Assembly: GCA_025361565.1 (NCBI GenBank)
Contig: JANYKN010000104.1
Coordinates: 1 to 64,000 of the forward strand
DNA length: 64,000 bases
Direction: 5' to 3'
Source of the DNA: Bacteroidota bacterium
GTDB lineage: Bacteria; Bacteroidota; Bacteroidia; Bacteroidales; NBLH01
Numbering within the stretch: position 1 is the stretch's first letter; every line of letters starts with the position of its first letter. The notes under the pieces were generated by a model. That model saw nothing but the letters and a program-made list of their open reading frames with translations. It was not told where the DNA came from and made no database searches. Shown here in pieces: positions 1-11,670 of this stretch. The translations under genes were made by a program, and so were the position numbers.

Positions 1-291
1 GTAAAGGGGAAAGTTAAATACAAATACATCTCCTCTTTTAATCTCACCCCTTCCTTTGTGCCAATTGTATTCGAGTTTTTTTTCAAATAGCAGTTTCCAA
101 ACATTGAGTACACGCGGGCCATAACTCATTTTGTTTACTAATATATAATCGCCTGGTTCTAAAGTGGGCGACATGGAGGGGCTTGGTATTTTATACAGCG
201 CAATAAAGTATATGCGTAGAATTGCAACAAATATAATAAAAGTAACACCCAACCATAAATTGGTAATATGTTTGTTAAATCGTCTATTCAT
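1..291 (-). CDS. lepB: Signal peptidase I, N-terminal part (cut by window edge)
   Basis: This would remove signal peptides from exported proteins at the inner membrane. Reading leftward from the ATG at 291, a membrane anchor (residues about 11-33) is followed by SPSMSPTL, where Ser39 is the expected catalytic nucleophile of the S26 family. After that come PGDYILVNKMSYGPRV and RGDVFVFNFPL, the family's substrate-binding box and the start of the box before the catalytic Lys. The general-base Lys lies beyond position 1, so only 97 codons are visible. It is the last visible gene downstream of the peptide locus on the same strand, but about 380 bases separate them. Confidence 0.85.
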   Translation of the reverse strand, partial: MNRRFNKHITNLWLGVTFIIFVAILRIYFIALYKIPSPSMSPTLEPGDYILVNKMSYGPRVLNVWKLLFEKKLEYNWHKGRGEIKRGDVFVFNFPLY

Positions 292-670
292 AACCTTGTA
301 TATAATAATAAAATCTCTTGAGACTTTCAAATAATTCAGTTTGTTTTATAATTAATGAGAACAATTATACAGAAATAAAGAATTCTTATATTTAAGAATT
401 TCTATTCCTAAAACCCTTATGCTTTTATATAATAACTTATTAAACACGTGACTAAAGTAATATTTACTAGATCTGCATTTCCAAGCAATAAAAAGGTAAG
501 AATAAAGAAATAGGGAAAGAAATTTTATAATCATAATAAATAAAACAACAAAATCTGGAGATCTTATTATGTTTAAGATTGGTATTATATAACTTGTTTT
601 GACAAAAATGTTAAAAGTTCTTTAAATACATGTTTGAAATGAATTATTTCAAACATGCATTTTCAAAATC
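292..670. other. Intergenic stretch without a convincing gene
   Basis: Very AT-rich. The only open stretch (352-534, minus) encodes 60 residues rich in Phe, Tyr, Lys and Leu, as random AT-rich DNA does, and I do not call it. The imperfect inverted pair TGTTTGAAAT (630-639) and ATTTCAAACA (646-655) forms a hairpin just past the end of the 671-934 gene and may end its transcript. Confidence 0.4.
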
Positions 671-934
671 TTAATTAACTGGTTTGGATTTCTTCTCAGT
701 TCTGTTAAAAACTAATATTGCACAACAAGCGCCAGCCCCATCTTTCCCACTGCCTACTTCGCAATCGTTACCACTACAATCTGGTAGAACTATTCTTGCG
801 GATGCATTTTGAATACCAAGAGACTCGCTCAAGGTTCCATTTAATATGTCAACTTGAGATGCCTTTAAATTGACAATCATACCTATTGACATAACAAATA
901 AACCAAATACCGAAATAATAAATAACTTTCTCAT
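671..934 (-). CDS. NVEAL-like small secreted peptide precursor with Cys-rich tail
   Basis: An 87-residue protein with a Lys/Arg start, a hydrophobic segment (residues about 4-21), then VNLKASQ and a short linker before a tail with Cys residues (DCSGNDCEVG, later GACCAIL). The layout matches the NVEAL family of Bacteroidota: an export signal ending near a V/F-N-V/L-N motif, a short propeptide-like stretch, then a variable Cys-bearing C-terminus. The match is weaker here than in the two peptides at 6445-6967, and the family's function is not established. It lies 57 bases downstream of the split thioredoxin-like gene. That context suggests a cargo peptide of the locus, which is inference. Confidence 0.5.
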   Translation of the reverse strand: MRKLFIISVFGLFVMSIGMIVNLKASQVDILNGTLSESLGIQNASARIVLPDCSGNDCEVGSGKDGAGACCAILVFNRTEKKSKPVN

Positions 935-991
935 ATGAAATTAATTAAATTAATGCCGGATTTTTTAAATTGGCATTCCAGCACAGCCATT

Positions 992-1363
992 TTATCTTTT
1001 GAAATAATTTATAAGTTTATTAAAGTATGGATCACTTATCGAATCATTGCTAGAGGCATGAAGAGGAAATTCAATTTCAAAATCTTTACTCGACTTAAAA
1101 TAAAATGGGGGATATCTACTTGTATCTTTTTCCATAGGTATATCGAAATTCTGGATTGTACGAAAACAATTAAATCCGATTTTTTTTTCTTGCATAAGTA
1201 TCTTTAACTGTAACTTATTTGAAGTCTTATAAATAAAAATAATCCTATTATTCCCAATACTATCTGCCAACCGTTTTAATAAATTCAGATTATCTTGTAC
1301 ACACGGAGGGCAAGTATTTTCATGTGCAACATAAATAAATGTCTCCTTCTTAATAATATCCAA
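992..1363 (-). CDS. Thioredoxin-fold domain with CPPC motif (C-terminal half of a split gene)
   Basis: The reading frame opens with TTG at 1361-1363 and encodes a compact thioredoxin-like domain: a beta strand (KETFIYVAH) leads into ENTCPPCVQDNLNLLKRLAD, a redox-type CxxC at the start of a helix. The family would shuttle disulfides or electrons on the outer face of the inner membrane. The upstream frame (1285-1620) supplies a membrane anchor and linker and runs directly into this domain after a -1 shift, so the two together look like one gene. A stop codon lies 6 bases before the TTG in this frame, so independent translation would have to begin right at the domain edge. Best read as the C-terminal part of a frameshifted or separately initiated protein. 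Confidence 0.55.
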   Translation of the reverse strand: MDIIKKETFIYVAHENTCPPCVQDNLNLLKRLADSIGNNRIIFIYKTSNKLQLKILMQEKKIGFNCFRTIQNFDIPMEKDTSRYPPFYFKSSKDFEIEFPLHASSNDSISDPYFNKLINYFKR

Positions 1364-1620
1364 ATTTTAAATGTATCATTTTCGGAATTAATTAATTGTA
1401 TATTATTAATTTTCATTTTTGCGGATAAAAATTCATTTTTTCTTGCAGCCTTAATCTTATCATTTTCATATTCAAGTTCATTATATTTACTAACTATAGT
1501 ATCAATCATTCCTTTTTGTCCAATAAATTGTTTTATGTTCAAGATTATTAAAATAGCAATAAATATTTCAATTACTCCAATAATAAAAAGACCAAAAATC
1601 CAAACTTTACTATTTCTCAT
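1285..1620 (-). CDS. Membrane anchor plus coiled linker, N-terminal half of the split thioredoxin-like gene
   Basis: ATG at 1620. Residues about 8-29 are a strong transmembrane segment (GLFIIGVIEIFIAILIILNI), followed by a charged helical linker to about residue 85. Beyond the Ile at codon 86 the frame continues for 25 residues that read as out-of-frame sequence (RRRHLFMLHMK). A -1 shift at that codon joins it to the CPPC thioredoxin-like domain at 992-1363. The combined product, about 210 residues, would be a single-pass membrane-tethered thioredoxin, a common architecture in this phylum. Start lies 5 bases downstream of the stop of the propeller lipoprotein, so the two are probably co-transcribed. 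Confidence 0.5.
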   Translation of the reverse strand: MRNSKVWIFGLFIIGVIEIFIAILIILNIKQFIGQKGMIDTIVSKYNELEYENDKIKAARKNEFLSAKMKINNIQLINSENDTFKIWILLRRRHLFMLHMKILALRVYKII

Positions 1621-1625
1621 TTTCT

Positions 1626-2771
1626 TTAATTAATTTTAATTAAAACTATAAGCGGGTTGCTCACTTGTTTGTCAGAAGAGTTAATTTGCATCTTTGATCT
1701 GCCCATGAATTCTTCAAAATCTTTAGGATCTACGATGCATATAAAACTATTTTCAAAGACCCCCTTTATTGTGCATACAGGTAAGAGTTTAGAACTGATT
1801 AGATTAGTAGATAAATATGATTCATTTGACTGTTTTGAGAAAATACAAAAGTCTTTCTGATCTTTATAATCGAAAGAAAATGTTATATACTTGTCATTTT
1901 CAAATAAATTATCGAAAGCTCTAACCTTGGGGCCTTGCACAGATTGGGCAATTATGTAGTCAAGATTTTTTTTTTGCAATTCCTCTTCGGAAAAAGCACA
2001 ATTCCCTAAATCAATTCTATATAAAGATGTAACCTTATTTCTATATAGTTGATATATATTATAATCTAATGGTGCAACCAATAAAATTCTATCATGTTTA
2101 TAAATTATTGATTCTGTATTGAATCTAGCTAAATCGATAGGAATTGGAAGCATCTTACAAATTATATTATGAAAATTATTATAATATATAACATAATTAT
2201 ATACTTCTTCAATTTGGGGCTTAGTAGCAGAGTTATGTAATTTCTCAAAATCTTCAGGTAAAATTCCATGCACAAATACAAGAAAAGTATCTACTCCAAT
2301 TGGCTCAATTGACCGAATTATTGTATTTTTAAGAAATTGGGCTTTTTTGAAATTTAAATCAAGATCATATTCTAACATTTTAAAATTGGCTTGATCAAAG
2401 AGATAGACATTCCCTTTAATACTATCAATATAAAAAGTGTAAGGTCTATTAGTTTCACCTGGGCCATCTCCTTTTTTTGATTTTCCAATAAATTTCCCCT
2501 TCTGATCAAATACAAATAGTGTTTTACTGATGCGTCTATCAAATATATAAAACCTATTTTTGCTATATTTCAAACTAGTAATTTCACCAATTAAGCATGA
2601 ATCATTTGTTTCCAACTCAATAATAGTTTTTATTTCAGTTTTCAGATTAGTGTTTTTACTAGATAAATTAATTTTTATTATATTATTAGTATTGTTATCT
2701 GGCTTGCATTTATTAAATAACATACAAATAAAAAAAATAGGTAAAATTAAATTTGTTTTAAAGTTCATCAT
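1626..2771 (-). CDS. 6-bladed beta-propeller lipoprotein
   Basis: A 381-residue protein with an export signal (residues about 6-22) ending at a Cys (FNKCKPD), consistent with the loose lipobox of this phylum. The N-terminal propeller region carries the family's hallmark: GEITSLKYSKNRFYIFD, then LFVFDQKGKFIGKSKKGDG and PGE, corresponding to the D...FD..GkF......G.GPGE signature of 6-bladed propellers often found beside NVEAL peptide genes in Bacteroidota. Likely displayed in the periplasm or outer membrane, where it may bind a peptide or glycan ligand; no substrate is known. It opens a group with the split thioredoxin-like gene and the 671-934 peptide. Confidence 0.75.
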   Translation of the reverse strand: MMNFKTNLILPIFFICMLFNKCKPDNNTNNIIKINLSSKNTNLKTEIKTIIELETNDSCLIGEITSLKYSKNRFYIFDRRISKTLFVFDQKGKFIGKSKKGDGPGETNRPYTFYIDSIKGNVYLFDQANFKMLEYDLDLNFKKAQFLKNTIIRSIEPIGVDTFLVFVHGILPEDFEKLHNSATKPQIEEVYNYVIYYNNFHNIICKMLPIPIDLARFNTESIIYKHDRILLVAPLDYNIYQLYRNKVTSLYRIDLGNCAFSEEELQKKNLDYIIAQSVQGPKVRAFDNLFENDKYITFSFDYKDQKDFCIFSKQSNESYLSTNLISSKLLPVCTIKGVFENSFICIVDPKDFEEFMGRSKMQINSSDKQVSNPLIVLIKIN

Positions 2772-3524
2772 ATTTTAAAGTTAAATTATTACGGTTTTCC
2801 TTTATGTTTATTATTTATAGTACTGTAAGGTCAATTAAGTATATTATTTAGAGTATTCTTATAATCGAATTATCTCCTTTAAATTAATTCAAACATATTT
2901 TCTAATTTCTTTTTACTTTTCAAACTACTTTTTCTTAAAATCATTTAATATGGATTCTTCAGCATAATTTTTCATCAAATCTGAAAATATATACTCCTGA
3001 AAAGCTTTCATAGTTAGGATAATGAATTTATGTAAGATCATAACTATATTTAATTTAAATAGAATGATAAGTATCTCAGATTATAATACATTACTTATTT
3101 TGCATGGTGTATTTGTTTATTTTTTGCTTTATTTTTGAGCGTTAGTTTATGCATTAATATTAATTAATTCTAAGCGGTATCGTTACAAAAGCTTTCTATC
3201 TTGTGATGGTTATATAAACGTATTTATTCAATAATGTCCTACTTCTTCAATTTGCAACGGTTTCAGATAAATGAGTTAATAACATATCAATTGTTAGATA
3301 TACTTTGAAATTCGGTTTGTAATAAAATGAGTAACAATAGATTTTGAACATTTGCAGATTATAACTTCAACATATTCCGCTTTTATGATACTGTTATCAT
3401 CGTCCAATTTTATGTTACTCAATATATCTTTATCAAATAATGCAATTTTCAAATTAATTATATATTCCGAACCTAGATTTAAAAAAAGATAATTCAACTA
3501 AAAGAATCGACATAAATATTTCAA
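2772..3524. other. Long AT-rich intergenic region inside the peptide locus
   Basis: About 750 bases with no convincing gene. It separates the upstream group (3525-6967) from the downstream group (671-2771), both on the minus strand, so a promoter for the propeller gene is expected here, but I find no good TAnnTTTG match. It contains one short protein-like stretch (2925-3041, listed separately) and a low-complexity open frame at 3294-3497 that I do not believe. The region may hold decayed sequence. Confidence 0.4.
2925..3041 (-). CDS. Possible small ORF or gene remnant
   Basis: ATG at 3041 (or internal ATG at 3011) to TAG at 2925, 38 or 28 codons. The shorter form starts MKAFQEYIFSDLMKNYAEES and reads more like genuine protein than the surrounding AT-rich sequence, with an amphipathic, charged composition. 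I recognise no family. It may be the end of a decayed gene or chance. Confidence 0.18.
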   Translation of the reverse strand: MILHKFIILTMKAFQEYIFSDLMKNYAEESILNDFKKK

Positions 3525-3905
3525 TTATATTCTTAATAAACCAATAGTAATCTTTTTATTACTATCAATATATAACTGTTTAATAGTAGACATTGGCAAT
3601 TTAATTCCAACATAATTTTTATGCAATATCATTAAACTACAGTTGTAATTAGGAACTTTAGTTATAAAATTTCCATTTTTATCAGTATAAGTGCAATTAA
3701 TTGAATCGTTAATTTGGATTTTAACTCCTAAAATTGGTTTTAAATTGGAAACATCTATTATAGTTCCTTTTATTTCTATACTAGAGACCATATCAGAGGA
3801 TTGAGTGATTGCAAAAGCATGGATTGCAATTAAAAATATTATTATAGATACTAGTGGCAATTCTTTCATTAACACTTGTAGCAAATTTTGGTTGAATTTT
3901 AACAT
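3525..3905 (-). CDS. Secreted protein with carboxypeptidase-regulatory-like domain
   Basis: A 126-residue protein with an export signal (residues about 14-33, ending HAFA) and one small beta-sandwich domain of the CarboxypepD-reg type: IEIKGTIIDVSNLKPILGVK, then TYTDKNGNFITKVP, the pattern seen at the start of many TonB-dependent receptors. Here the domain stands alone with no receptor barrel. It begins 6 bases after the thioredoxin-like lipoprotein and is presumably co-transcribed. It could act as an extracytoplasmic binding or scaffolding module; the role is unknown. An internal ATG at codon 13 is an alternative start that gives a more typical signal peptide. Confidence 0.65.
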   Translation of the reverse strand: MLKFNQNLLQVLMKELPLVSIIIFLIAIHAFAITQSSDMVSSIEIKGTIIDVSNLKPILGVKIQINDSINCTYTDKNGNFITKVPNYNCSLMILHKNYVGIKLPMSTIKQLYIDSNKKITIGLLRI

Positions 3906-3911
3906 TTGTTT

Positions 3912-4373
3912 TTAATTATTAAAATTTGTGATTATTGTAAATTTGTTTTTTTCTAAATAATTAATTATTTCAGGATCAAAAGAATTTAGATTTGTAATTT
4001 TTCCCACGTGATTATTTGAGATATGCATAAATAATCCTTTACCACTCAAAATATCATATTTTATAATCTTTGAATTCTTGTCGTAAAATAAATTATGAAC
4101 ATTTTTAATACTGTCAAAGTATTCTTTGTTTTCATTTAAAATTTCTCCAATTAAAACAACATCCAACTTCTTAATTCCTTTTACATCTAATAAATGGAGA
4201 ATATCTTTTGAACAACTTATGCAGGCAACATTTATCATGAAAATGAAATGTTCTTCATTATCAAGGTTTAATTTCAAATATTTTTCATTATATTTTCTGA
4301 ATTCTTTAAGCTCTGGTTGCCCTATATTACCACAAGATGCAAAAATGACTAAAGTAAAAACCAGGTATTTCAT
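3912..4373 (-). CDS. Thioredoxin-fold lipoprotein with CISC motif
   Basis: I choose the internal ATG at 4373 because it gives a compact lipoprotein signal (MKYLVFTLVIFASCGN, lipobox ending ASC); the ATG at 4403 adds ten residues. The mature part has a strand (EEHFIFMINVACISCSKDIL) leading into a helix, the thioredoxin arrangement, with C-I-S-C in the active-site position. Similar short thioredoxin-like lipoproteins accompany propeller and peptide genes in this phylum. The Ser before the second Cys, instead of Pro or His, is atypical, so oxidase or reductase activity is uncertain. With the CPPC protein at 992-1620 it makes two potential disulfide-handling proteins in a locus of Cys-bearing peptides. 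Confidence 0.6.
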   Translation of the reverse strand: MKYLVFTLVIFASCGNIGQPELKEFRKYNEKYLKLNLDNEEHFIFMINVACISCSKDILHLLDVKGIKKLDVVLIGEILNENKEYFDSIKNVHNLFYDKNSKIIKYDILSGKGLFMHISNNHVGKITNLNSFDPEIINYLEKNKFTIITNFNN

Positions 4374-4413
4374 ATAATATTTTAAAATTACTTTATCTTC
4401 CATATATTCTAAT

Positions 4414-5094
4414 TTAATTCATTTTTATAATCTTGCCATTTTTGTCATTAATTATTATAGAATCAATTATCATTTCAGGAACTCTATTTGTAAATAAAAC
4501 AAGACTATCATTCATGAATTCTGGTTCATTAAAACTTTCATAATTACCTTTAACGAATAAATCTTCATGCTTCCAAATAAATTTACCGTTAACCAAATCT
4601 AACTTGCCAATAAAGCCAAGTGTACTAATATATACAGAATTATCTTTTACAGCTGGTCTTGCTAAATTAAGTGCATAAATATGAGTACTCCAAATGATTC
4701 TATTTTGATTGAGAGAAATTCTTTTAGCAGTACTCCCACACGATTCCCCATCTGAATAAACATATAATACTATGATATCATTTTCTATTTGATAAATAAA
4801 CAATTCTGTAATTTGATCTTCTGGTACTATATTAAAGAACAACTTACCATCTTTATAAGCTTTACCTTTAGGAGTAATAAGTATCTTATCACTTCCTAAT
4901 TGAATATGCATAGTATCCGGCCGAATTTCATTTGAATTATTATATTCAACAATTTGAAAAAAAGTAATTTTTACCTTAAGAGCTTCACTACTTAAAATAA
5001 TTTTTCTTTCTGGACTATTATTTTGTCGATCATCTATCTTTTGTATACAATTCGAGAAGAGGAAAAAAGCAACTATTAGTTTAATTATTTTCAT
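4414..5094 (-). CDS. Lipoprotein with PQQ-like beta-propeller repeats
   Basis: A 226-residue protein with a signal ending in a lipobox-like FSNCIQK. The C-terminal half shows repeat units of the PQQ/outer-membrane-assembly propeller type: RISLNQNRIIWSTHIYALNL, then PAVKDNSVYISTLGFIGKLD and NGKFIWKHEDLF, each with the x-G-x-I/x-W turn of such blades. Too short for a full propeller, so it is a partial one or a smaller fold. Likely extracytoplasmic. It lies between the DUF4221-like lipoprotein (53 bases upstream) and the CISC lipoprotein (40 bases downstream of its stop), consistent with one transcript. Confidence 0.5.
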   Translation of the reverse strand: MKIIKLIVAFFLFSNCIQKIDDRQNNSPERKIILSSEALKVKITFFQIVEYNNSNEIRPDTMHIQLGSDKILITPKGKAYKDGKLFFNIVPEDQITELFIYQIENDIIVLYVYSDGESCGSTAKRISLNQNRIIWSTHIYALNLARPAVKDNSVYISTLGFIGKLDLVNGKFIWKHEDLFVKGNYESFNEPEFMNDSLVLFTNRVPEMIIDSIIINDKNGKIIKMN

Positions 5095-5147
5095 ACCACT
5101 GATATTAGTGAATTTATAATTCTGTTTTTAGGATTTTGAAAAAAAAT

Positions 5148-6332
5148 CTATTTTTTAATCTTTTTAATGGCGTTTTCTATATCTAATAATTCAAAACTTA
5201 AAAATCCTTCTTTTGGATTTACATCCTGTATTAATAAACCATCTTTCACAGGTAATATATTATAAAAATTAAATTTTCCTTTAGGCATGTTAATTTCTCC
5301 AATTACCAAAAAATCATCATTCATAACAACTAAAGACCATGCACAATCAAAAAAATCATGCTTTTCTCCACCTTCATTTTTCAATATCTGTTCATGTTTG
5401 CATATTCGGTAAAAAATCTTTCGATATTTATCATAAATAATATTAATATATGCAGGTTCCGATAAGCAAAAATTATACGCTTGCATCGGGCTAGATTCAT
5501 AATTAAATATTTTAAAATCCTCAATATAATTACTCTTTGTGTTGTTCTGAGATATTAAGTTTCCATTTTTTGTGTTATAGACATAAATTAAATGATCATT
5601 TGCAAAAGAAACAATTAATATAGAATCTTTATATGCAAAATTGGGATACTCATAATATATTGAATATTTTATACCCTGCTCGCTACTTTTAAATTTTTCA
5701 GGTAAATTAGCAAAGACATTAATTATTTTTTTATTGCTAATTGAATAAGATGCAATAATCGGTAATTCCCATTTAATTTTAAATGTTTTTTGTTCATAAT
5801 TATATATTGGAAAATATAATTTATTACTTAATTTCTCATAGTAAACTGATTTCGATAAAGGATATAAATGCATCATTAAAAAAATATTTTTGCCATTTAA
5901 TTCGAAATTATCAGGCACTTTGAATAAATTATAGTTTTTAAATGAACTATCTGTCATAATAATAGTCGAGGGATACCTTTTAAACAGAAATATTTCATTT
6001 AAAGAACTCACATAAAACATATCAACTCCATTTATTTTTATGCTATCGTTTCTATTTAATCCTACTTTTTTATGATAAATATTTTTCTTAATATCAAAAA
6101 CATCTAGCAGATTTCTTCTAATATCCAAGCCAAAAAAATAAAAACTACCATTTTCTTCAAGAATTTGTGATATATCATGGGCATAAGTGGATGTATCCGG
6201 TATATTTAGTATAAACTTCGTTTTTGTAATTGGCAGTTGTAATAATTCATTTTTTTTATAAATATTGCTCTCACAACAAACAATTAAAACACTAAATAGC
6301 AAATAAATAATTCCATTAATTTGTATTTTCAT
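5148..6332 (-). CDS. DUF4221-like / propeller-like lipoprotein
   Basis: A 394-residue lipoprotein: the signal (residues about 8-20) ends VCCESN, and the mature protein has regularly spaced beta-rich segments with FD or YD-type turns (FYFFGLDIRRNLLDVFDIKK, LIYVYNTKNGNLISQN, LVVMNDDFLVIGEIN). The length and pattern match the DUF4221 lipoproteins of Bacteroidota, distant relatives of 6-bladed propellers that often sit beside NVEAL peptide genes. No enzymatic motif is visible. It follows the two peptide genes at 6445-6967 by 112 bases. A role in binding the peptides, or a ligand sensed with them, is inference. Confidence 0.55.
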   Translation of the reverse strand: MKIQINGIIYLLFSVLIVCCESNIYKKNELLQLPITKTKFILNIPDTSTYAHDISQILEENGSFYFFGLDIRRNLLDVFDIKKNIYHKKVGLNRNDSIKINGVDMFYVSSLNEIFLFKRYPSTIIMTDSSFKNYNLFKVPDNFELNGKNIFLMMHLYPLSKSVYYEKLSNKLYFPIYNYEQKTFKIKWELPIIASYSISNKKIINVFANLPEKFKSSEQGIKYSIYYEYPNFAYKDSILIVSFANDHLIYVYNTKNGNLISQNNTKSNYIEDFKIFNYESSPMQAYNFCLSEPAYINIIYDKYRKIFYRICKHEQILKNEGGEKHDFFDCAWSLVVMNDDFLVIGEINMPKGKFNFYNILPVKDGLLIQDVNPKEGFLSFELLDIENAIKKIKK

Positions 6333-6444
6333 AGTAAGCTTTTGATAAATTAAAATTCAAATTATAATTATCGAATATCAAATTCAACTGAAGTAAACAG
6401 TTAGCCTTAAATATAAATTTATTAAAGACTAACTTTTGGATCCA

Positions 6445-6699
6445 TTAATTGGCCATTATTACACAATAACAACTTGGATATGCAACATAATAAGGACAAA
6501 CACAATATCCATAATTATATGGAACATGCATGAAATAATTCCCAGGAAAAGGAACAGGATCGCCTAATGCGAGAGCTACTTTACTATTTGAGTTCAATGA
6601 AAATTCAACTTCTTGCTTAGTATTATGGATGTTGACATTAAATGTAAGTAAGACTATGAGAATAAATAAACTTATTCCAATTAAAATTTTCTTTTTCAT
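6445..6699 (-). CDS. NVEAL-like small secreted peptide with CxC...CxC tail
   Basis: An 84-residue precursor. MKKKILIGISLFILIVLLTF is a Lys-rich export signal; it is followed by NVNI, a short polar linker and SNSKVALALGD, closely resembling the F-N-V-N and xNVEALA blocks that define NVEAL-family peptides. The C-terminal tail is rich in Tyr, Pro and Cys (YGYCVCPYYVAYPSCYCVIM), with two C-x-C pairs separated by nine residues. Its first 18 bases are identical to those of the neighbouring 6722-6967 gene, 22 bases upstream, so the pair is probably a tandem duplication with divergent tails. The family has no established function. Confidence 0.72.
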   Translation of the reverse strand: MKKKILIGISLFILIVLLTFNVNIHNTKQEVEFSLNSNSKVALALGDPVPFPGNYFMHVPYNYGYCVCPYYVAYPSCYCVIMAN

Positions 6700-6721
6700 T
6701 TTTATTATGTTTTAATATAAT

Positions 6722-6967
6722 TTATAATGGTTTAAATACACATACGCAACCTTTCAATGGACGATTACAAAAGCAATAGCAAATGCCATTAAGCCATACC
6801 GCTTCACCTGGGGCACCAGATGGAGGATCTGCCACATTTGTACTAAGTGCCTGAGGATTATTCAAGATTGCATTGGTAGTAGTATTATTAGCACCACTAC
6901 TTATATTAAAGCTAATAATAGAAACAATAGTGAGTATACACAATCTAAATAAAATTTTCTTTTTCAT
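6722..6967 (-). CDS. NVEAL-like small secreted peptide with CxCxC...CxC tail
   Basis: An 81-residue precursor, first gene of the locus. The export signal (MKKKILFRLCILTIVSIISF) leads to NISSG, a polar stretch and NPQALSTNVADPP, the position of the NVEAL block. The tail ends GICYCFCNRPLKGCVCVFKP, giving C-x-C-x-C and then C-x-C, the same C-x-C theme as its neighbour. The spacing and near-identical starts suggest duplication. A GAPGE segment just before the Cys tail could be a processing site, but no protease or radical-SAM modifying enzyme is encoded nearby, so maturation other than signal cleavage and disulfide formation is unproven. Confidence 0.68.
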   Translation of the reverse strand: MKKKILFRLCILTIVSIISFNISSGANNTTTNAILNNPQALSTNVADPPSGAPGEAVWLNGICYCFCNRPLKGCVCVFKPL

Positions 6968-7032
6968 CGTAATAATTATTAAAATTTATATAAAGTTTAT
7001 AGAAATATAATTAAGTTATCCAGCGACTTTCA

Positions 7033-7110
7033 TATCTTTGCCCCCAAAGGGGCTAAAAGAACTGATGTTTAATTCCCATTATACCTAGGTTTATAGTATG
7101 CCCCTTTTCT
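7033..7110 (+). ncRNA. Candidate small structured RNA with its own -7 box
   Basis: TATCTTTG at 7033-7040 fits the TAnnTTTG promoter element, although no TTG is found at the -33 spacing. Transcription would start near 7047, at AAAGGGGC (7046-7053), which pairs exactly with GCCCCTTT at 7100-7107. ATAC (7081-7084) pairs with GTAT (7096-7099) just inside that stem, and a T-rich stretch follows. The result is a closed transcript of roughly 60 bases ending like a terminator. A GCCCC/GGGGC hairpin at 7040-7053 resembles GC-rich extragenic palindromes common in this phylum, so a repeat remnant is the main alternative. Confidence 0.25.
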
Positions 7111-7166
7111 ATTTCAATAGAAATTAGACCTACTTATTATTTACAATAGAGAAATGCTTTTTGGCA

Positions 7167-7206
7167 GCTATCCTATGTTTATCAATGTCTTGATATGGTA
7201 GATAGC
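7167..7206. repeat. Nested inverted repeat (hairpin)
   Basis: GCTATC (7167-7172) pairs with GATAGC (7201-7206), and inside it TATCAA (7180-7185) pairs with TTGATA (7190-7195), giving a long two-part hairpin. It is not followed by a clear T-run. Its role is unknown. Confidence 0.4.
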
Positions 7207-7427
7207 ACTTATTTTGGATGGGTAATAAATAGTTTCATGTTGTTTGGTTTTTAGTTTTGGTTATTCGTATTTATAGTTTTCAAATTTATACTTGCTGCAT
7301 TCTTCACAAATCTATCCAACACAAAACCAAACGGCAACAAATATTTACGTATGCAAGTATAGGTAAATAAAATGTATTTTCAATGCTACCCCCCAATTTA
7401 GATTTATTCTAAATAAAAGAAGTGGGT

Positions 7428-7571
7428 TTAGATGGAGTATTCCATGATAAATGTTTCATTTTGTGCAAATACCAAAATATGTTGTAAAACATGTTCGTTC
7501 AAATAATCCTTTAGTACCAATGCCTGCCGAAATTCATTTATCTTTTCTGCAAATACACTTGACAAATTCAT
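7428..7571 (-). CDS. Small uncharacterised ORF, 47 residues
   Basis: ATG at 7571 to TAA at 7428. The product begins MNLSSVFAEKINEFRQALVL, continues KDYLNEHVLQHILVFAQNET and ends FIMEYSI. The composition (helical, balanced charge, no run of Lys/Asn/Ile codons) looks more like a real protein than neighbouring noncoding DNA. It is divergent from the DUF6261 gene, 81 bases away. No family is recognised; it could be a small cytosolic protein or the remnant of a larger gene. Confidence 0.3.
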   Translation of the reverse strand: MNLSSVFAEKINEFRQALVLKDYLNEHVLQHILVFAQNETFIMEYSI

Positions 7572-7652
7572 TGTATCATAAATAGATTAGCATACGTTCT
7601 ATACCTAGAAAGTGAATTTGTGTGAAGGCATTTATAAACTAAAAAAAATTAT

Positions 7653-8414
7653 ATGATGCAAAAAATTTCATTTTATCCATCCATCTTCTTAGCAGAAGAA
7701 ACAAACACAGCAGCCAAACAAATAACAACTGCTGTTAATTCATCACAAAATATCAATGAAACTCTGTTGTTGGCAAAAGCTGCCTTAGAAACCAGCAACG
7801 AAAAATTGACTAGGGTTATTCATGCTATACTGGCTAATCCTCACACACAGGATTTAACCAATGCAGATGGCAGCAGAGATACAACCTTTGTTGGTGGCAG
7901 AAATGTAATTGAAGGTTTTACACATTGGGAATTTGATGTTGCAAAAAAAGATGCCGCCATTAGGTTGGTAGAAGTTATTAACCGCAATGGATGGAGTTTG
8001 CATGCTTATGGTTACTCCAAACAAAGTTCTGCCACCAATTCATTGATCAATGAATTAAAAAAGCCTGAATTACAAGCGGATTTGGCTACACTGGGGCTTT
8101 TAAACTGGTATGCTGAACTTATCAAATCTCAAGAAAATTTCGAAAGTATCTTTAACCTTAAAGCCGGTACTAAAAACAGCAAAGAGTCTGTTGAAAAAAG
8201 AGAAGCTCAAATTCCGGTGAACGAGGATATTGAGAAATTGATCACCTACTTGAATTCCATCATTATGTTTAACACCAAAGACGAGAACTGGAATAAAATT
8301 TTTAACGATGTTGAAGGTATTGTTAAACAAATGACAAGTGTGGCAAGGGCACGTAGATCAAACCACAAAACAGACAATTCGGCTAGTACAGATAAGCCGG
8401 AGGACAAAAAGTAA
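7653..8414 (+). CDS. DUF6261-like protein
   Basis: A 253-residue protein predicted to be cytosolic and mostly helical, with no signal peptide or membrane segment. The central region (residues about 70-170) has the family pattern: DGSRDTTFVGG, then HWEFDVAKKDAAIRLVEVIN, a YGYSKQSSATNSLINELKK block, and LGLLNWYAELIKSQENFESI. These correspond to the RD, D..kr.AA..L..v...yG, and GL..W...L...N..F segments of DUF6261 proteins in Bacteroidota. The C-terminal 25 residues are polar and probably disordered. The function is unknown; in other genomes such genes often lie next to short tandem repeats, as here. It is monocistronic, ended by a strong terminator. Confidence 0.6.
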   Translation: MMQKISFYPSIFLAEETNTAAKQITTAVNSSQNINETLLLAKAALETSNEKLTRVIHAILANPHTQDLTNADGSRDTTFVGGRNVIEGFTHWEFDVAKKDAAIRLVEVINRNGWSLHAYGYSKQSSATNSLINELKKPELQADLATLGLLNWYAELIKSQENFESIFNLKAGTKNSKESVEKREAQIPVNEDIEKLITYLNSIIMFNTKDENWNKIFNDVEGIVKQMTSVARARRSNHKTDNSASTDKPEDKK

Positions 8415-8435
8415 TACAAAAAATATATGACTGTT

Positions 8436-8466
8436 AAGAGCCGGGAAAATTCCGGCTCTTTTTTTT
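8436..8466 (+). terminator. Rho-independent terminator of the DUF6261-like gene
   Basis: AAGAGCCGG (8436-8444) and CCGGCTCTT (8452-8460) form a perfect 9-bp stem with a 7-base loop, followed by a run of eight T residues to 8466. Confidence 0.9.
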
Positions 8467-8483
8467 ACATTAAAATTCCAGGG

Positions 8484-8795
8484 TTTTTCAATCAGCATGG
8501 TTTTAATACTATTTCAAACGCCACTTTTTCAGCCAGCTTAGTTTTAATAGTATTGCAATCTCTATTTTTTCAGCCAGCATGGTTTTAATACTATTACAAA
8601 CTTCATTTTTTCAGCCAGCATAGTTTTAATACTATTGTAATGTTCATTTTTTCAGCCAGCATAGTTTTAATACTATTACAATGTTCATTTTTTCAGTCAG
8701 CTTGGTTTTAATAGTATTACAATATTCATTTTTTCAGCCAGCATGGTTTTAATACTATTACAATGTTCATTTTTTCAGTCAGGTTATTCTTAATA
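8484..8795. repeat. Tandem array with exact 41-bp period (about 7-8 units)
   Basis: The anchor TTTTAATA recurs at 8501, 8542, 8583, 8624, 8665, 8706 and 8747, with a decayed copy at 8788, always exactly 41 bases apart. A consensus unit is CAGCATGGTTTTAATACTAT followed by TACAATGTTCATTTTTT. Each unit has a palindromic core TAATA-C/G-TATTA. Two linked variants exist: units with CAGCAT carry AATACT, and the two with CAGCTT carry AATAGT. There are no unique spacers, so this is a minisatellite, not a CRISPR array; 41 is not a multiple of 3, so it is not coding. It fills the gap between two convergent genes. Confidence 0.95.
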
Positions 8796-8835
8796 GGGTC
8801 ATAAAGGCTGTTTTTTCACACAAGCAAATTAAGCT

Positions 8836-9585
8836 TTATAGAAAAACAACTTCTTTAAAAGCAAATTGAAGGAGTTCTTTTTTTTCGTTCAACAAGCAGA
8901 GCCTGCCAAACTGATCAATATCGATAATTTTGGCGGTGAACACCTCATCACCGACTTTGTATTGATGAAGTTTTTGATATCTATACAAAAGAAATAGGTA
9001 CTCAATATCAATATCATCTACTTTACTTGTTTTTAGCTTATTATACCAATAATTCAATTTTGAAAACAAGGTTTCATACAATTCTTCCAATTGATAGGTA
9101 TCTCCAGTTTCAAGGCTAAGTGAGGTAGGATTTGGCAAGGCCGGACTAAAAGTTTTCTGGTTAATATTTAATCCAATACCTGCAATTGAACTCGAAATAC
9201 TATTTCCTATCAATGTATTTTCAATCAAAACACCAGCTATCTTTTTTTCATTTACATAAATATCGTTTGGCCATTTGATTTTAACATCAGTTATAAATGT
9301 TTTTAAAAAATCCACAATCCCAAGCGAAATTACTTTTGAAATCATAAATTGATTCCGGGCATCAATAAAAGTGGGATATATAACAAAACTCAGGGTTACA
9401 TTTTCGCCTTTATTACTTTCCCAGCAATTGCCAACCTGGCCTCTTCCGGCAGTTTGCTCTTGTGTAATAATCACAGTTCCTTCTTGGGGTGTTTCTACCT
9501 TTAACAATTCTTTTAAATAATTGTTGGTAGAATCAACCGTTTCAAGGTTTATGATATTATCTCCTATTGAATGAATTATTTTCAT
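8836..9585 (-). CDS. birA: Biotin--[acetyl-CoA-carboxylase] ligase (BirA, catalytic domain only)
   Basis: Activates biotin with ATP and attaches it to the biotin carrier protein of acyl-CoA carboxylases. I start at the ATG at 9585 (MKIIHSIGDNIINLETVDST), because DSTNNYLKE is the usual beginning of the catalytic domain. Motifs seen: QTAGRGQVGNCWES, the biotinyl-AMP loop, and KWPNDIYVNEKKIAGVLIEN, with the substrate-binding Lys. The 249-residue product lacks the N-terminal winged helix of E. coli BirA, so it is an enzyme without the repressor function. It is the last gene of the molybdenum-cofactor cluster, about 185 bases past mogA, and the 41-bp array follows it. Confidence 0.9.
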   Translation of the reverse strand: MKIIHSIGDNIINLETVDSTNNYLKELLKVETPQEGTVIITQEQTAGRGQVGNCWESNKGENVTLSFVIYPTFIDARNQFMISKVISLGIVDFLKTFITDVKIKWPNDIYVNEKKIAGVLIENTLIGNSISSSIAGIGLNINQKTFSPALPNPTSLSLETGDTYQLEELYETLFSKLNYWYNKLKTSKVDDIDIEYLFLLYRYQKLHQYKVGDEVFTAKIIDIDQFGRLCLLNEKKELLQFAFKEVVFL

Positions 9586-9677
9586 GTTTAATTTAAAAGG
9601 TGTAAGTGCGATTACTGGACATTTCAATTTATAGTTATCTTTTCAATAGATTAATTTGATTCATTTAATTATGACAT

Positions 9678-9712
9678 TGGGTTCAATCCCCCAACCCCCT
9701 TCGCCAAGGGGG
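9678..9712. repeat. Extragenic GC-rich palindrome
   Basis: CCCCCTT (9695-9701), loop CGCC, AAGGGGG (9706-9712) is a perfect 7-bp stem standing out in AT-rich DNA. It is preceded by TTGGGTTCAATCCCCCAA, itself an imperfect hairpin. Such CCCCC-AACCCCC...GGGGG elements are typical dispersed extragenic palindromes of Bacteroidota. The location between birA and mogA suggests either transcript stabilisation or partial termination. Confidence 0.6.
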
Positions 9713-9770
9713 AAAGCGTTTATCCACATTTCCAGTATTTTATCATTCGTCAAATCTCGAAACTATAAAA

Positions 9771-10301
9771 TCAATGTTTATTATGCGTATCAATACCATA
9801 AAGCATATAAATAAGATGTTCCAATGTTTTTAAAATTTCTACCATATATTCTTTTACGGCTTTTACACTGCCTGGCAAACAATATAATTGGGTTTGGCCC
9901 ATTACACCCGCCACTCCCCTGCTCAATAATGCATTTGGTATAAACTGTCCATATTTAATACGGATATTTTCCATGATTCCAGGAATTTCCTTTTCAATCA
10001 GCTTTTTAGCAACTTCAGGAGTAAAATCCCTGGGACCAATTCCAGTTCCTCCGGTGGTTATTACGATATCGGTTTTGTTACTTTTGGCAGAGATTAACTT
10101 TTTTTCAAGCAAATCAGCATCATCGGGGATAATTTCCAAATCAATATCGAAAATCCAATCCTTTTCAGTAAAATAGTTTTTAATAAAATTTACAGTTTCA
10201 GGGCCGCTTAAATCCTCATATTCACCCCTACTCGCCCTATCGCTTAAAGTAATAACATGGATTTTAAGCTTTTTGTTTTGCTTGAATTCTTCTTTGGTCA
10301 T
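9771..10301 (-). CDS. mogA: Molybdopterin adenylyltransferase (MogA/MoaB family)
   Basis: Adenylates molybdopterin so that MoeA can insert molybdenum. The 176-residue protein has the family's DRASRGEYEDLSGP near the N-terminus, TTGGTGIGPRDFTPE in the middle (the molybdopterin-binding loop) and PGSVKAVKEYM near the C-terminus. The aspartates in SDRAS and GPRDFTPE correspond to catalytic residues of MogA. It lies downstream of the DUF2459-like gene on the same strand, but the two are separated by a 226-base repeat-containing stretch. Paired with moeA, moaA and moaC in this window, it gives most of the cofactor pathway; moaD, moaE, moeB and mobA are not present here. Confidence 0.92.
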   Translation of the reverse strand: MTKEEFKQNKKLKIHVITLSDRASRGEYEDLSGPETVNFIKNYFTEKDWIFDIDLEIIPDDADLLEKKLISAKSNKTDIVITTGGTGIGPRDFTPEVAKKLIEKEIPGIMENIRIKYGQFIPNALLSRGVAGVMGQTQLYCLPGSVKAVKEYMVEILKTLEHLIYMLYGIDTHNKH

Positions 10302-10319
10302 AAGATGTTTATTTTTAAT

Positions 10320-10527
10320 GCGTGAATGCTCAAATGCTTGAATGCTTAAATAAAATTCGCCTTTCGTCTGTCAAATTATTTTCTTCAATTTTTCTAATTG
10401 TTCCAGCTAGCTTATTGATTGTGTGTCTGGATAATTCATAAACCATCATTATTTCATTTAACATTCATTTATTCTCTCATTCATAGATTCACGCATTCAG
10501 TCATTCAATCATTGACGCATTCACTCA
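10320..10527. repeat. Octamer arrays in opposite orientations flanking a 110-bp core
   Basis: On the left, GTGAATGC, TCAAATGC and TTGAATGC follow each other at 10322-10345. On the right, CATTCAGT, CATTCAAT, CATTGACG and CATTCACT follow each other at 10494-10525, preceded by looser copies from 10462. The right-hand octamers are reverse complements of the left-hand ones, so the block is an inverted repeat around 10346-10461. The core has a 39-codon minus-strand frame (ATG 10449 to TGA 10330) starting MMVYELSRHTINKLAGTIRK that runs into the left array. It looks like a decayed mobile or miniature element between mogA and the rest of the operon. Confidence 0.6.
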
Positions 10528-11199
10528 TTACTTCAAGTAAAACAACACCGATTTGTCAAAAGGTGCCCACAATGAATTTTTAACCCCAACTTTTTTTAAT
10601 CCCCTGCTTGTCCAGTTATTACAGGTAAATAACAAACTGTATTTTCCATTGGCTTCGAAATAAAGCAAATTTGAATTACTGATTTTTTCTGGCTCTATCT
10701 TGATTGGATTCAAAGATCCATCCAACACAAATGATTGATAAATATAAGCATTCAATTGATTTAATTGATTTTGTGACAGGTTAATTTTTATCGTATTTTT
10801 TGAAGTTTCCGGTCTTTCATCTATACAATATATTTGCAAAACTGCATCAGTGGGCAAGAATGCAGCTTTAAATGCAGTACTTAATTTTATATCGGACCAG
10901 TTTGGTGTATTCATATAAAATTCTTTATCGCCCCAACCAAAAGCAATGTATTTGCAGTTGTTATTTAACTTCAAAAGGTTGTTCCAGTTAAATGCCTGAG
11001 ATTGAGATGGAACAATTATGTTGGTATGAACACCGTTGGAACTGATATAAATTTCGGTTTCAGATGCTTTGTTTTGGAAATCTGAATTGACTGGAATCAA
11101 AGCTAGCACGATTGCAACCAAAAGATAGACAATAATCAGCAGTACAAAGCCAATTATTATTTTCAATATAATGGAAGCAATTTTCTCCAGCACATCCAC
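10528..11199 (-). CDS. DUF2459 / TIGR02117-like membrane-anchored protein
   Basis: A 223-residue protein with one long N-terminal transmembrane segment (residues about 9-37) and an extracytoplasmic domain. The family markers are visible: EIYISSNGVHTNIIVP, YIAFGWGDKEFYMNTPNWSD and LFTCNNWTSRGLKKVGV, matching the NGxHtdl, GWGDrxFY and CNtWta motifs of the family once called urease-region hypothetical. No enzymatic function is established; the conserved His, Asp and Cys suggest a papain-like fold. The start codon is GTG at 11199, 5 bases after the moaC stop, so it belongs to the cofactor operon by position. Its role there is unclear. Confidence 0.75.
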   Translation of the reverse strand: MDVLEKIASIILKIIIGFVLLIIVYLLVAIVLALIPVNSDFQNKASETEIYISSNGVHTNIIVPSQSQAFNWNNLLKLNNNCKYIAFGWGDKEFYMNTPNWSDIKLSTAFKAAFLPTDAVLQIYCIDERPETSKNTIKINLSQNQLNQLNAYIYQSFVLDGSLNPIKIEPEKISNSNLLYFEANGKYSLLFTCNNWTSRGLKKVGVKNSLWAPFDKSVLFYLK

Positions 11200-11204
11200 A
11201 AGGT

Positions 11205-11657
11205 TTATAGATCAGTTTTTGTTTTTTCAATTAATCGCACATTTTCAATAATCATGTGTTTATCAACAGCTTTGCACATATCATAAATGGTAAGTAATGC
11301 TACCGAAACTCCCGTAAGTGCTTCCATTTCAACGCCGGTTTGCCCTATGCAGCGAACTTCTCCAATCACTTTTACACCTGTTTCATCAAGGATGGCGTGT
11401 ATTTTCACTTTATTGATTAACAATGGGTGGCACAATGGAATAAGGTCGCTTGTTCTTTTGGCGGCCTGGATTCCTGCAATTTCTGAAACTGTCAATACAT
11501 CGCCTTTTTTCATATTGTTTTCTTTTATCAAGGCAATGGTTTCTGGATTAAGTGTAATATGTCCCTCGGCAATTGCTATCCGGAGTTGTTGATCTTTATT
11601 TCCCACATCAACCATTCTTGCTTTACCATCGGAATCGGTGTGCGATAATTGACTCAT
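11205..11657 (-). CDS. moaC: Cyclic pyranopterin monophosphate synthase (MoaC)
   Basis: Converts the MoaA product, 3',8-cyclo-dihydro-GTP, to cyclic pyranopterin monophosphate, the first stable intermediate of molybdenum cofactor. The 150-residue protein is full length and carries the family blocks LSHTDSDGKARMVDVGNKD, AIQ-type AGIQAAKRTSDLIPLCHP (with the catalytic His-Pro), TGVEMEALTGVSVALLTIYD and MCKAVDK with the catalytic Lys. Asp near the C-terminal helix (YDMCKAVDK) is also conserved. The gene lies 13 bases after the serine phosphatase gene and directly before the DUF2459-like gene, within the modE-moaC run. Confidence 0.95.
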   Translation of the reverse strand: MSQLSHTDSDGKARMVDVGNKDQQLRIAIAEGHITLNPETIALIKENNMKKGDVLTVSEIAGIQAAKRTSDLIPLCHPLLINKVKIHAILDETGVKVIGEVRCIGQTGVEMEALTGVSVALLTIYDMCKAVDKHMIIENVRLIEKTKTDL

Positions 11658-11670
11658 TTTATTACTATTA

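What the first reader, a model, noticed from the sequence alone, without database searches (positions are those of the whole stretch)
671..6967. Locus of Cys-bearing NVEAL-like peptides with propeller lipoproteins and two thioredoxin-fold proteins
Within 6.3 kb on one strand lie three small secreted peptide precursors with Cys tails, three lipoproteins of propeller or repeat type, one stand-alone carboxypeptidase-regulatory-like domain, a lipoprotein with CISC and a membrane thioredoxin with CPPC. NVEAL peptides beside 6-bladed propellers are a known recurring pairing of unknown function; the combination with thiol-disulfide proteins suggests an export and oxidative folding pathway for a peptide signal, toxin or surface ligand. 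This is inference from content and order.
Basis: partly seen in the sequence, partly recalled or inferred. Interest (0 to 1): 0.75.

Follow-up and report, generated by a model that had tools for sequence, protein, structure and literature searches.

The report
Secreted cysteine-peptide operon in Bacteroidales
This stretch is one of five related gene clusters in this bacterium that appear to make, fold with sulphur bridges and export small cysteine-rich peptides, and related machinery recurs in common gut bacteria, often beside a sensor gene, which suggests a cell-to-cell signal or weapon.

Summary
The content is real. Window 671-6967 (minus strand) holds three signal-bearing Cys-rich peptide genes, DUF5128 and DUF4221 propeller lipoproteins, a CISC lipoprotein, and a membrane thioredoxin whose TM and CPPC halves lie in different frames. 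The genome has five such operons; all five of its DUF5128/DUF4221 hits lie in them.

It resembles a Bacteroidales-wide system. Of 80 loci fetched by a CxxC lipoprotein, 77 hold propellers, 70 NVEALA-type peptides, 51 a transglutaminase-like lipoprotein, 39 S26, 35 Wzy_C/TPR, 19 RND. In 28 genomes 26 of 87 S26 genes lie within 10 kb of these families (2.7 expected). Cys-bearing cores have even Cys counts in 134 of 152. A divergent membrane regulator often abuts the operon, beside a two-Cys peptide (25 of 27).

Best reading: regulated processing, oxidative folding and export of disulfide peptides; signal versus antagonist is open. Against: the window's peptides miss PF14055, one has five Cys and no AxA; regulator, transglutaminase and Wzy_C were not found in this genome's peptide operons; only 18 of 97 propellers in the propeller-seeded set have a Cys peptide just upstream.

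The parts
6968..7413 (-). Repeated 5' element ahead of peptide 1; copies precede all five peptide operons of this genome (those on C144 and C139 are cut by contig ends); the core, window 7040-7159, is near-identical in all five
   Evidence: search of own genome; blastn and alignment of the copies; core coordinates; consensus fold without covariation; no Rfam family at its gathering score
6722..6967 (-). Peptide precursor 1 (81 aa): signal/anchor plus 5-Cys tail; no [AV]xA in the expected place
6445..6699 (-). Peptide precursor 2 (84 aa): signal/anchor, ALA ending at residue 44, 4-Cys tail
5148..6332 (-). DUF4221 propeller-type lipoprotein (394 aa)
   Evidence: PF13970 E 2.5e-12; all 3 DUF4221 hits of the genome lie in peptide operons
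4414..5094 (-). Lipoprotein of repeat type (226 aa), weakly BamB-like
   Evidence: E 0.016, far below cut-off
3912..4403 (-). Lipoprotein with CISC (163 aa), likely thioredoxin-fold (inferred)
   Evidence: no Pfam hit; weak likeness to the TRXL profile
3525..3905 (-). Stand-alone secreted CarboxypepD_reg-like domain (126 aa)
   Evidence: PF13715 E 1.6e-7, 31.6 bits against cut-off 32.2
1626..2771 (-). DUF5128 six-bladed propeller lipoprotein (381 aa)
   Evidence: PF17170 E 1e-28; both DUF5128 hits of the genome lie in peptide operons
992..1620 (-). Membrane thioredoxin with CPPC, interrupted: TM half 1285-1620 and CPPC half 992-1363 in different frames
671..934 (-). Peptide precursor 3 (87 aa): signal/anchor, ASA ending at residue 46, 4-Cys tail
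1..291 (-). N-terminus (97 aa) of an S26 signal peptidase with the serine motif PSMSP; cut by the contig end
   Evidence: PF10502 E 3.7e-14; window 1-141 is identical to the end of contig C67, which carries an S26 C-terminal part, and to the start of contig C139

Best explanation
The window locus is one operon of a peptide-secretion system of Bacteroidales, in a divergent branch. Each unit makes small precursors: a membrane-inserting N-terminus, a spacer of about 20 residues ending in a signal-peptidase-like A-x-A site (NVEALA in the canonical branch, only A-x-A or less in the window's genus), and a Cys-rich core of roughly 35-60 residues. A dedicated S26 signal peptidase releases the core (inferred); CxxC thioredoxin-fold proteins encoded alongside form or edit its disulfides (inferred from even Cys counts and linkage); the propeller lipoprotein encoded next to the peptide binds, presents or receives it (inferred); linked MFP-RND-TolC genes in a subset may export it (inferred, weakest). 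In many relatives the operon is divergent from a transmembrane regulator with a presumed periplasmic sensor domain and a winged-helix or histidine-kinase output, beside a two-Cys peptide of one type, so expression is probably controlled by an envelope cue that may be the peptide itself. Shown: gene content, order, family matches, co-occurrence, Cys parity, ruler-like leader. Not shown: expression, cleavage, redox chemistry, export, activity.
For: Own genome: five peptide operons (C114, C67, C189, C144, C139); all 5 DUF5128/DUF4221 hits lie in them. 39 NVEALA-centred regions against 14 controls (560 vs 278 kb): propeller 35 vs 1, thioredoxin-like lipoprotein 22 vs 0, S26 12 vs 0, Wzy_C/TPR 12 vs 0, transglutaminase-like 11 vs 0. 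S26: 26 of 87 genes in 28 genomes within 10 kb of PF17170/PF14055, 2.7 expected, 0 of 200000 simulations; 15 of 87 near PF14055 alone, 0.9 expected. Reverse test from the thioredoxin-like lipoprotein, 80 loci: propeller 77, peptide 70, transglutaminase-like 51, S26 39, Wzy_C 35, MFP 23, RND 19; 544 of 550 labelled genes on the strand of the query match. Peptides: 154 distinct; even Cys 134, odd 18, none 2; 8.2% Cys in the core vs 0.7% in the leader; motif ends a median 23 residues past the hydrophobic stretch, 5-95% range 19-24; 123 distinct cores are followed within 400 b by a propeller gene. Catalytic Ser and Lys motifs kept in the linked S26. Thioredoxin-like lipoprotein model (pLDDT 86) matches ResA-type oxidoreductases among others. 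Regulator: one family is 35 of 48 distinct genes in the divergent position, winged helix like PhoB/CadC/ToxR.
Against: The window's peptides do not match PF14055; peptide 1 has 5 Cys and no [AV]xA in place. The membrane thioredoxin is frame-broken. The CISC lipoprotein has no Pfam hit and only 14.8% hhalign probability to the TRXL profile. No full-length regulator in the own genome; Wzy_C hits of the own genome lie on other contigs; no transglutaminase seen in its operon maps (no family search was made for it, and a 710-aa protein on C139 is unassigned). Many propellers stand alone: 18 of 97, 38 of 82 and 111 of 222 have a Cys peptide within 600 b upstream in three sets. Peptide-propeller co-diversification is weak: r 0.095; shuffles over all pairs reach it in 0 of 2000, within-locus shuffles in 87 of 2000. 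A kinase/response-regulator cluster is not specific (10 of 39 vs 3 of 14 regions). ResA-like folds can be reductants, so redox direction is open.
Confidence: 0.62

Rival explanations
1. Antagonism: the cores are bacteriocin-like antimicrobial peptides and the neighbouring propeller lipoproteins give immunity or uptake specificity; many diverse copies per genome reflect an arms race.
For: Cores differ widely while the leader end is conserved; 26 loci hold two or more peptide-propeller pairs; closest characterised parallel, bacteroidetocins, pairs a 4-Cys peptide with a thiol oxidoreductase (PMC6671954, passages).
Against: No GG leader; no ORF large enough for a peptidase-ABC exporter in window 1-12000 (largest 467 aa); the regulator-linked two-Cys peptide is conserved, unlike a diversifying toxin; weak co-diversification with propellers.
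Confidence: 0.3
2. Signalling: the two-Cys peptide beside the membrane regulator is an autoinducer sensed by its periplasmic domain; further peptides in the operon are outputs.
For: Regulator in the divergent position, 35 of 48 distinct genes; two-Cys class 25 of 27 next to it vs 38 of 127 elsewhere, p 1.1e-9; sequence similarity of the N-terminal region links winged-helix and histidine-kinase versions; of 7 matches with E below 1e-30 in 28 genomes, 2 are rows of the query itself and 3 of the other 5 lie within 250 b of a PF14055 hit.
Against: No binding or induction data; the regulator could sense envelope or redox state; 2 of the 5 independent strong matches have no listed PF14055 hit beside them; absent from the window's genome.
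Confidence: 0.35
3. Surface assembly: peptides are building blocks or ligands fixed to the envelope by the transglutaminase-like and Wzy_C proteins, with propellers as scaffolds.
For: Transglutaminase-like in 51 and Wzy_C/TPR in 35 of 80 loci; 19 of 93 Wzy_C genes lie within 5 kb of an S26 gene, 0.8 expected.
Against: Neither was found in the window genome's peptide operons; transglutaminase folds are often proteases (recalled), so cross-linking is a guess.
Confidence: 0.2
4. Neighbourhood only: independent small secreted proteins and lipoproteins co-located by duplication, with no joint pathway.
For: Repeated 5' elements show local duplication; many propellers lack a peptide.
Against: The association holds across many families and from several query directions, with 544 of 550 labelled genes on one strand.
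Confidence: 0.05

Closest known systems
NVEALA protein family (Pfam PF14055) next to DUF5128 propellers (PF17170)
   Same: Small precursor, membrane-inserting N-terminus, spacer, A-x-A, Cys-rich tail, propeller lipoprotein gene nearby; 28 of 72 PF14055 places lie within 5 kb of a PF17170 place, 1.2 expected
   Different: The window's peptides are below detection by PF14055 and keep only A-x-A or less; no function was found attached to either family in the papers searched
Bacteroidetocins (class II-like bacteriocins of Bacteroidales; PMC6671954, passages seen)
   Same: Cys-bearing peptide with an adjacent thiol oxidoreductase; mature length 42 aa with 4 Cys
   Different: Bacteroidetocins have a 15-16-aa leader cut after GG by a peptidase-ABC exporter; here a roughly 43-aa leader ends in A-x-A and the linked protease is S26, with propellers and, in a subset, RND genes
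RiPP clusters of Bacteroidales (PMC10352776, passages incl. part of the abstract)
   Same: Leader-core precursors in Bacteroidales
   Different: Those are tied to GG leaders and peptidase-ABC transporters; the terms propeller, signal peptidase, thioredoxin and RND have 0 occurrences in that text
ToxR/CadC-type one-component membrane regulators
   Same: TM regulator with an OmpR-type winged helix (CadC DNA-binding domain Z 13.2, rmsd 2.6, 99 aligned; ToxR Z 12.5, rmsd 2.4, 95 aligned)
   Different: Here the winged helix is C-terminal (in ToxR/CadC N-terminal, recalled); the same family includes histidine-kinase versions; not in the window's genome

Membership tests
NVEALA (PF14055) | Match to the family HMM above the curated cut-off of 27 bits | tested here: not met
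   0 matches in the own genome and none for the three window peptides
NVEALA (PF14055) | Layout: membrane-inserting N-terminus, spacer, A-x-A ending near residue 43, Cys-rich core | tested here: inconclusive
   2 of the 3 window precursors meet it, peptide 1 does not. [AV]xA ends at 38-47 in 9 of 11 precursors of G000/G001, shuffled mean 1.56, 0 of 20000 reach it; two of the nine (C144) are coincidental since their A-x-A is at residues 22-24
DUF5128 / DUF4221 propellers | HMM match above curated cut-off | tested here: met
   1626-2771: 100.9 bits vs 22.9; 5148-6332: 47.5 bits vs 23.4
Type I signal peptidase S26 (PF10502) | HMM match and Ser/Lys catalytic dyad | tested here: inconclusive
   Window 1-291 has the HMM match and the Ser motif; the Lys motif (VKRC) is seen in the C67 part, but the gene is split at a 141-b end shared by three contigs
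Thioredoxin-fold oxidoreductase | CxxC in a thioredoxin fold | tested here: inconclusive
   CxxC present in both window proteins; the CPPC half matches the membrane-thioredoxin family model, whose fold was not tested; fold shown only for the relatives' TRXL protein
Bacteroidetocin / class II bacteriocin | GG leader and peptidase-ABC exporter | tested here: not met
   No GG leader in the three window peptides; no ORF large enough for such an exporter in window 1-12000
Bacteroidetocin / class II bacteriocin | Antimicrobial activity | not testable with these tools
   needs an assay
Peptide quorum sensing | Secreted peptide induces its own operon through a cognate receptor | not testable with these tools
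   only gene linkage

The most novel reading that the evidence does not exclude
A peptide communication system of Bacteroidales: a conserved two-Cys peptide, cut by a dedicated signal peptidase rather than a peptidase-ABC exporter and folded by linked thiol-disulfide proteins, is sensed by a divergently encoded membrane regulator (winged-helix or histidine-kinase output) that switches on batteries of diverse four- to six-Cys effector peptides, many paired with a propeller lipoprotein. The window's genus would carry a regulator-less branch under a shared 5' element.
Probability: 0.3. Interest if true: 0.92.

Novelty: new variant of a known kind. Interest (0 to 1): 0.74.

Why it matters
The secreted peptides of the dominant Gram-negative gut order that turned up in this reading are GG-leader products of peptidase-ABC exporters (PMC6671954, PMC10352776). 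A second, widespread route with its own signal peptidase, thiol chemistry and membrane regulator would open many uncharacterised peptides, in species such as Phocaeicola vulgatus and Parabacteroides distasonis, to direct test, and give DUF5128, DUF4221 and NVEALA a working hypothesis.

Tried and rejected
Calling the window's peptides NVEALA members: rejected, no HMM match. RNA element for the 5' repeat: no Rfam family at its gathering score, 0 of 36 pairs changed on both sides, no excess of promoter or terminator patterns; left unexplained. Gene remnants in 2780-3524: no convincing match to the locus proteins (one 13-residue hit). Propeller alignment A2 as a collection query failed for lack of a conserved stretch. 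Co-diversification of peptide and propeller: weak. The second look at folds covered model residues 249-351, so the sensor domain of the regulator was barely tested. Spread outside the order: 4 of 395 genomes of the phylum match PF14055, 2 over the cut-off, both in the order. Paper searches for NVEALA, NVEAL, DUF5128, DUF4221, DUF4934, locus tags BVU_008/BVU_009 and combinations found no paper on the system; the library lacks most subscription journals and all bioRxiv preprints. One paper lists, in an iron-response table, BT0662 'O-Antigen ligase family protein' and BT0664 '6-Bladed beta-propeller' of B. thetaiotaomicron two locus numbers apart (PMC10434189, passages); it was not followed further. 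PMC12632263 was seen in passages only.

Choices that shape counts: the 14 control regions were picked by hand, 13 of them from propeller-bearing genomes. The 28 genomes are the 25 with a PF14055 match plus G000, G001 and G061, so they are not a random sample. In one search one entry per S26 gene was chosen by hand (87 genes) and the PF17170 list was the 150 places printed, not all; Wzy_C had 93 entries after dropping second halves by hand. Chance expectations assume uniform placement and ignore contig ends. Some genomes occur in two sets (contigs of G110 and G292 have the lengths of P. acidifaciens and P. chinchillae records): 3 of the 38 regulator genes and of the 51 divergent genes are duplicates; peptides were made distinct first. 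The 80 named loci are the best 80 of 172, several share a genome, and three record titles (L240, L247, L265) name non-Bacteroidales metagenome bins. S26 calls can include housekeeping genes (L264 has such a pair besides its locus copy). For fold A6, 5 of the 28 proteins first listed were left out (one for a stop codon, four others with it).
Full report
WHAT IS THERE. On the minus strand the order is: repeated 5' element, peptide 1 (6967-6722), peptide 2 (6699-6445), DUF4221 propeller lipoprotein (6332-5148), repeat-type lipoprotein (5094-4414), CISC lipoprotein (4403-3912), CarboxypepD_reg-like protein (3905-3525), a 753-b gap without clear genes, DUF5128 propeller lipoprotein (2771-1626), a membrane thioredoxin split over two frames (1620-992), peptide 3 (934-671) and the first 97 residues of an S26 signal peptidase (291-1). 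The window starts at the contig end. The last 141 bases of contig C67 are identical to window 1-141. C67 reads on with an S26 C-terminal part, the repeated element, a 6-Cys peptide, a DUF5128 propeller, a membrane thioredoxin with CNSC and the start of an RND gene. Contig C139 begins with the same 141 bases, so which contigs adjoin is not settled.

FIVE OPERONS IN ONE GENOME. The 5' element recurs on C67, C189, C144 and C139, each time ahead of one or two Cys peptides, followed by a propeller-type lipoprotein and a CxxC lipoprotein or membrane protein. Both DUF5128 hits and all three DUF4221 hits of the 6.76-Mb genome lie in these operons; the propeller-type gene on C144 matches by clustering only. 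RND genes adjoin three of the five (C67, C144, C189). A same-genus genome (L054) has two peptides, propeller pieces, a thioredoxin-like gene, S26, MFP, RND and TolC, and then peptide, DUF4221-type gene, CISC lipoprotein and DUF5128.

A WIDER SYSTEM. PF14055 was searched in 393 genomes of the order (25 with a match, 21 over the cut-off) and 39 regions around hits were fetched, besides 72 propeller-seeded or own-operon regions (own locus included) and 14 control regions. Clustering their proteins gave recurrent partners in the 39 regions: propeller 35, thioredoxin-like lipoprotein 22, S26 12, Wzy_C/TPR protein 12, transglutaminase-like lipoprotein 11, RND 5, MFP 5, TolC 4; the controls held one propeller and none of the other seven. 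A kinase/response-regulator cluster (10 of 39 vs 3 of 14) was not specific. In 28 genomes chosen mostly for having PF14055, 26 of 87 S26 genes lie within 10 kb of PF17170 or PF14055 places against 2.7 expected; 15 of 87 lie near PF14055 alone against 0.9; 18 of 93 Wzy_C genes lie near either family against 3.1; 19 of 93 Wzy_C genes lie within 5 kb of an S26 gene against 0.8. As a reverse test, the thioredoxin-like lipoprotein was used to scan named genomes: the best 80 of 172 loci come from Parabacteroides, Bacteroides, Phocaeicola, Tannerella, Odoribacter, Dysgonomonas and others, and hold propeller 77, NVEALA peptide 70, transglutaminase-like 51, S26 39, Wzy_C 35, MFP 23, RND 19, TolC 7. Of 550 labelled genes 544 share the strand of the query match.

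THE PEPTIDES. Among 154 distinct motif peptides the core has a median of 37 residues; 134 have an even and 18 an odd non-zero Cys count (binomial 4e-23), 2 have none. Cys is 8.2% of core and 0.7% of leader residues. The motif ends at residue 43 (median), 23 residues past the hydrophobic stretch with a 5-95% range of 19-24, and E is common at +3 (126 of 154). This ruler plus A-x-A fits a signal peptidase site set away from the membrane; that S26 makes the cut is inference. In the window's genus the motif is reduced to A-x-A: 7 of 9 long-leader precursors of G000 and G001 have [AV]xA ending at 40-47; peptide 1 and the C189 peptide do not, and the two C144 peptides have a short leader.

REDOX PARTNERS. 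The thioredoxin-like lipoprotein of relatives has an invariant CxxC in the aligned sets and its model (pLDDT 85.9) matches ResA-type thiol-disulfide oxidoreductases and peroxiredoxins by one domain and PapD-like proteins by the other; Pfam names the second DUF1573. A paper on bacteroidetocins states that Bacteroides lack the general disulfide machinery and that a thiol oxidoreductase beside the peptide likely supplies it (PMC6671954, passages). The window's CISC lipoprotein is a candidate for the same role, but its homology to that family is not shown.

THE REGULATOR. One family fills the divergent position in 35 of 48 distinct genes (38 of 51 with duplicates): a TM helix, a region presumed periplasmic, a second TM helix and an OmpR-type winged helix, or a histidine kinase in some. 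The model's C-terminal domain matches PhoB, CadC and ToxR DNA-binding domains. Peptides next to it are two-Cys in 25 of 27 cases against 38 of 127 elsewhere (Fisher p 1.1e-9), and most of them align as one family with a short C-to-C loop of the kind CxGxGxxxC. Of 7 matches with E below 1e-30 in 28 genomes, 2 (G292:C7, G110:C61) are rows of the query itself; 3 of the other 5 lie within 250 b of a PF14055 hit and 2, at the end of G292:C20, have none listed. The window's genome has only short, winged-helix matches, so it seems to lack this regulator.

AGAINST. Not all propellers have peptides (18 of 97, 38 of 82, 111 of 222 with one within 600 b upstream). Peptide and propeller co-diversify only weakly (0 of 2000 shuffles over all pairs but 87 of 2000 within loci reach the observed correlation of 0.095). 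The window's own membrane thioredoxin is interrupted and one of its peptides is odd in Cys and site. RND linkage is a minority feature. Function as signal, antagonist or surface ligand is not decided by gene content.

VERDICT. The machinery reading (processing, oxidative folding and export of disulfide peptides) is the best supported; the signalling reading is the boldest that the evidence allows.

Noticed in passing
window 6968-7413 and four other contigs of the genome (C67, C189, C144, C139): A 5' element, near-identical in its core (window 7040-7159) across all five peptide operons, with a possible GCCCC-TTT-GGGGGC hairpin; no Rfam family and no covariation.
   Followed up: partly
window 1-141, C67 end, C139 start: The same 141 bases inside an S26 gene end three contigs: a repeat at which the assembly broke, so the genome has at least two near-identical S26 stretches.
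   Followed up: partly
window 8484-8782: Tandem array of a 41-base unit, 7.3 copies, 86% matches, downstream of a DUF6261 gene.
   Followed up: no
window 16435-19776 and 20032-23601: Two tandem paralogues of 1113 and 1189 aa (73-76% DNA identity by segments); the first has Reg_prop and SpoIIE phosphatase domains.
   Followed up: no
L177, L184, L180, L186: In one family of the order (f106) a histidine kinase plus response regulator is encoded divergently beside the peptide or propeller genes instead of a one-component winged-helix protein.
   Followed up: partly
L120, L121, L122, L123, L124: Weak DUF5128 hits in the window's genus and G045 lie in a different, conserved gene cluster rich in CxxCH motifs (judged by eye), not in peptide loci.
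   Followed up: no
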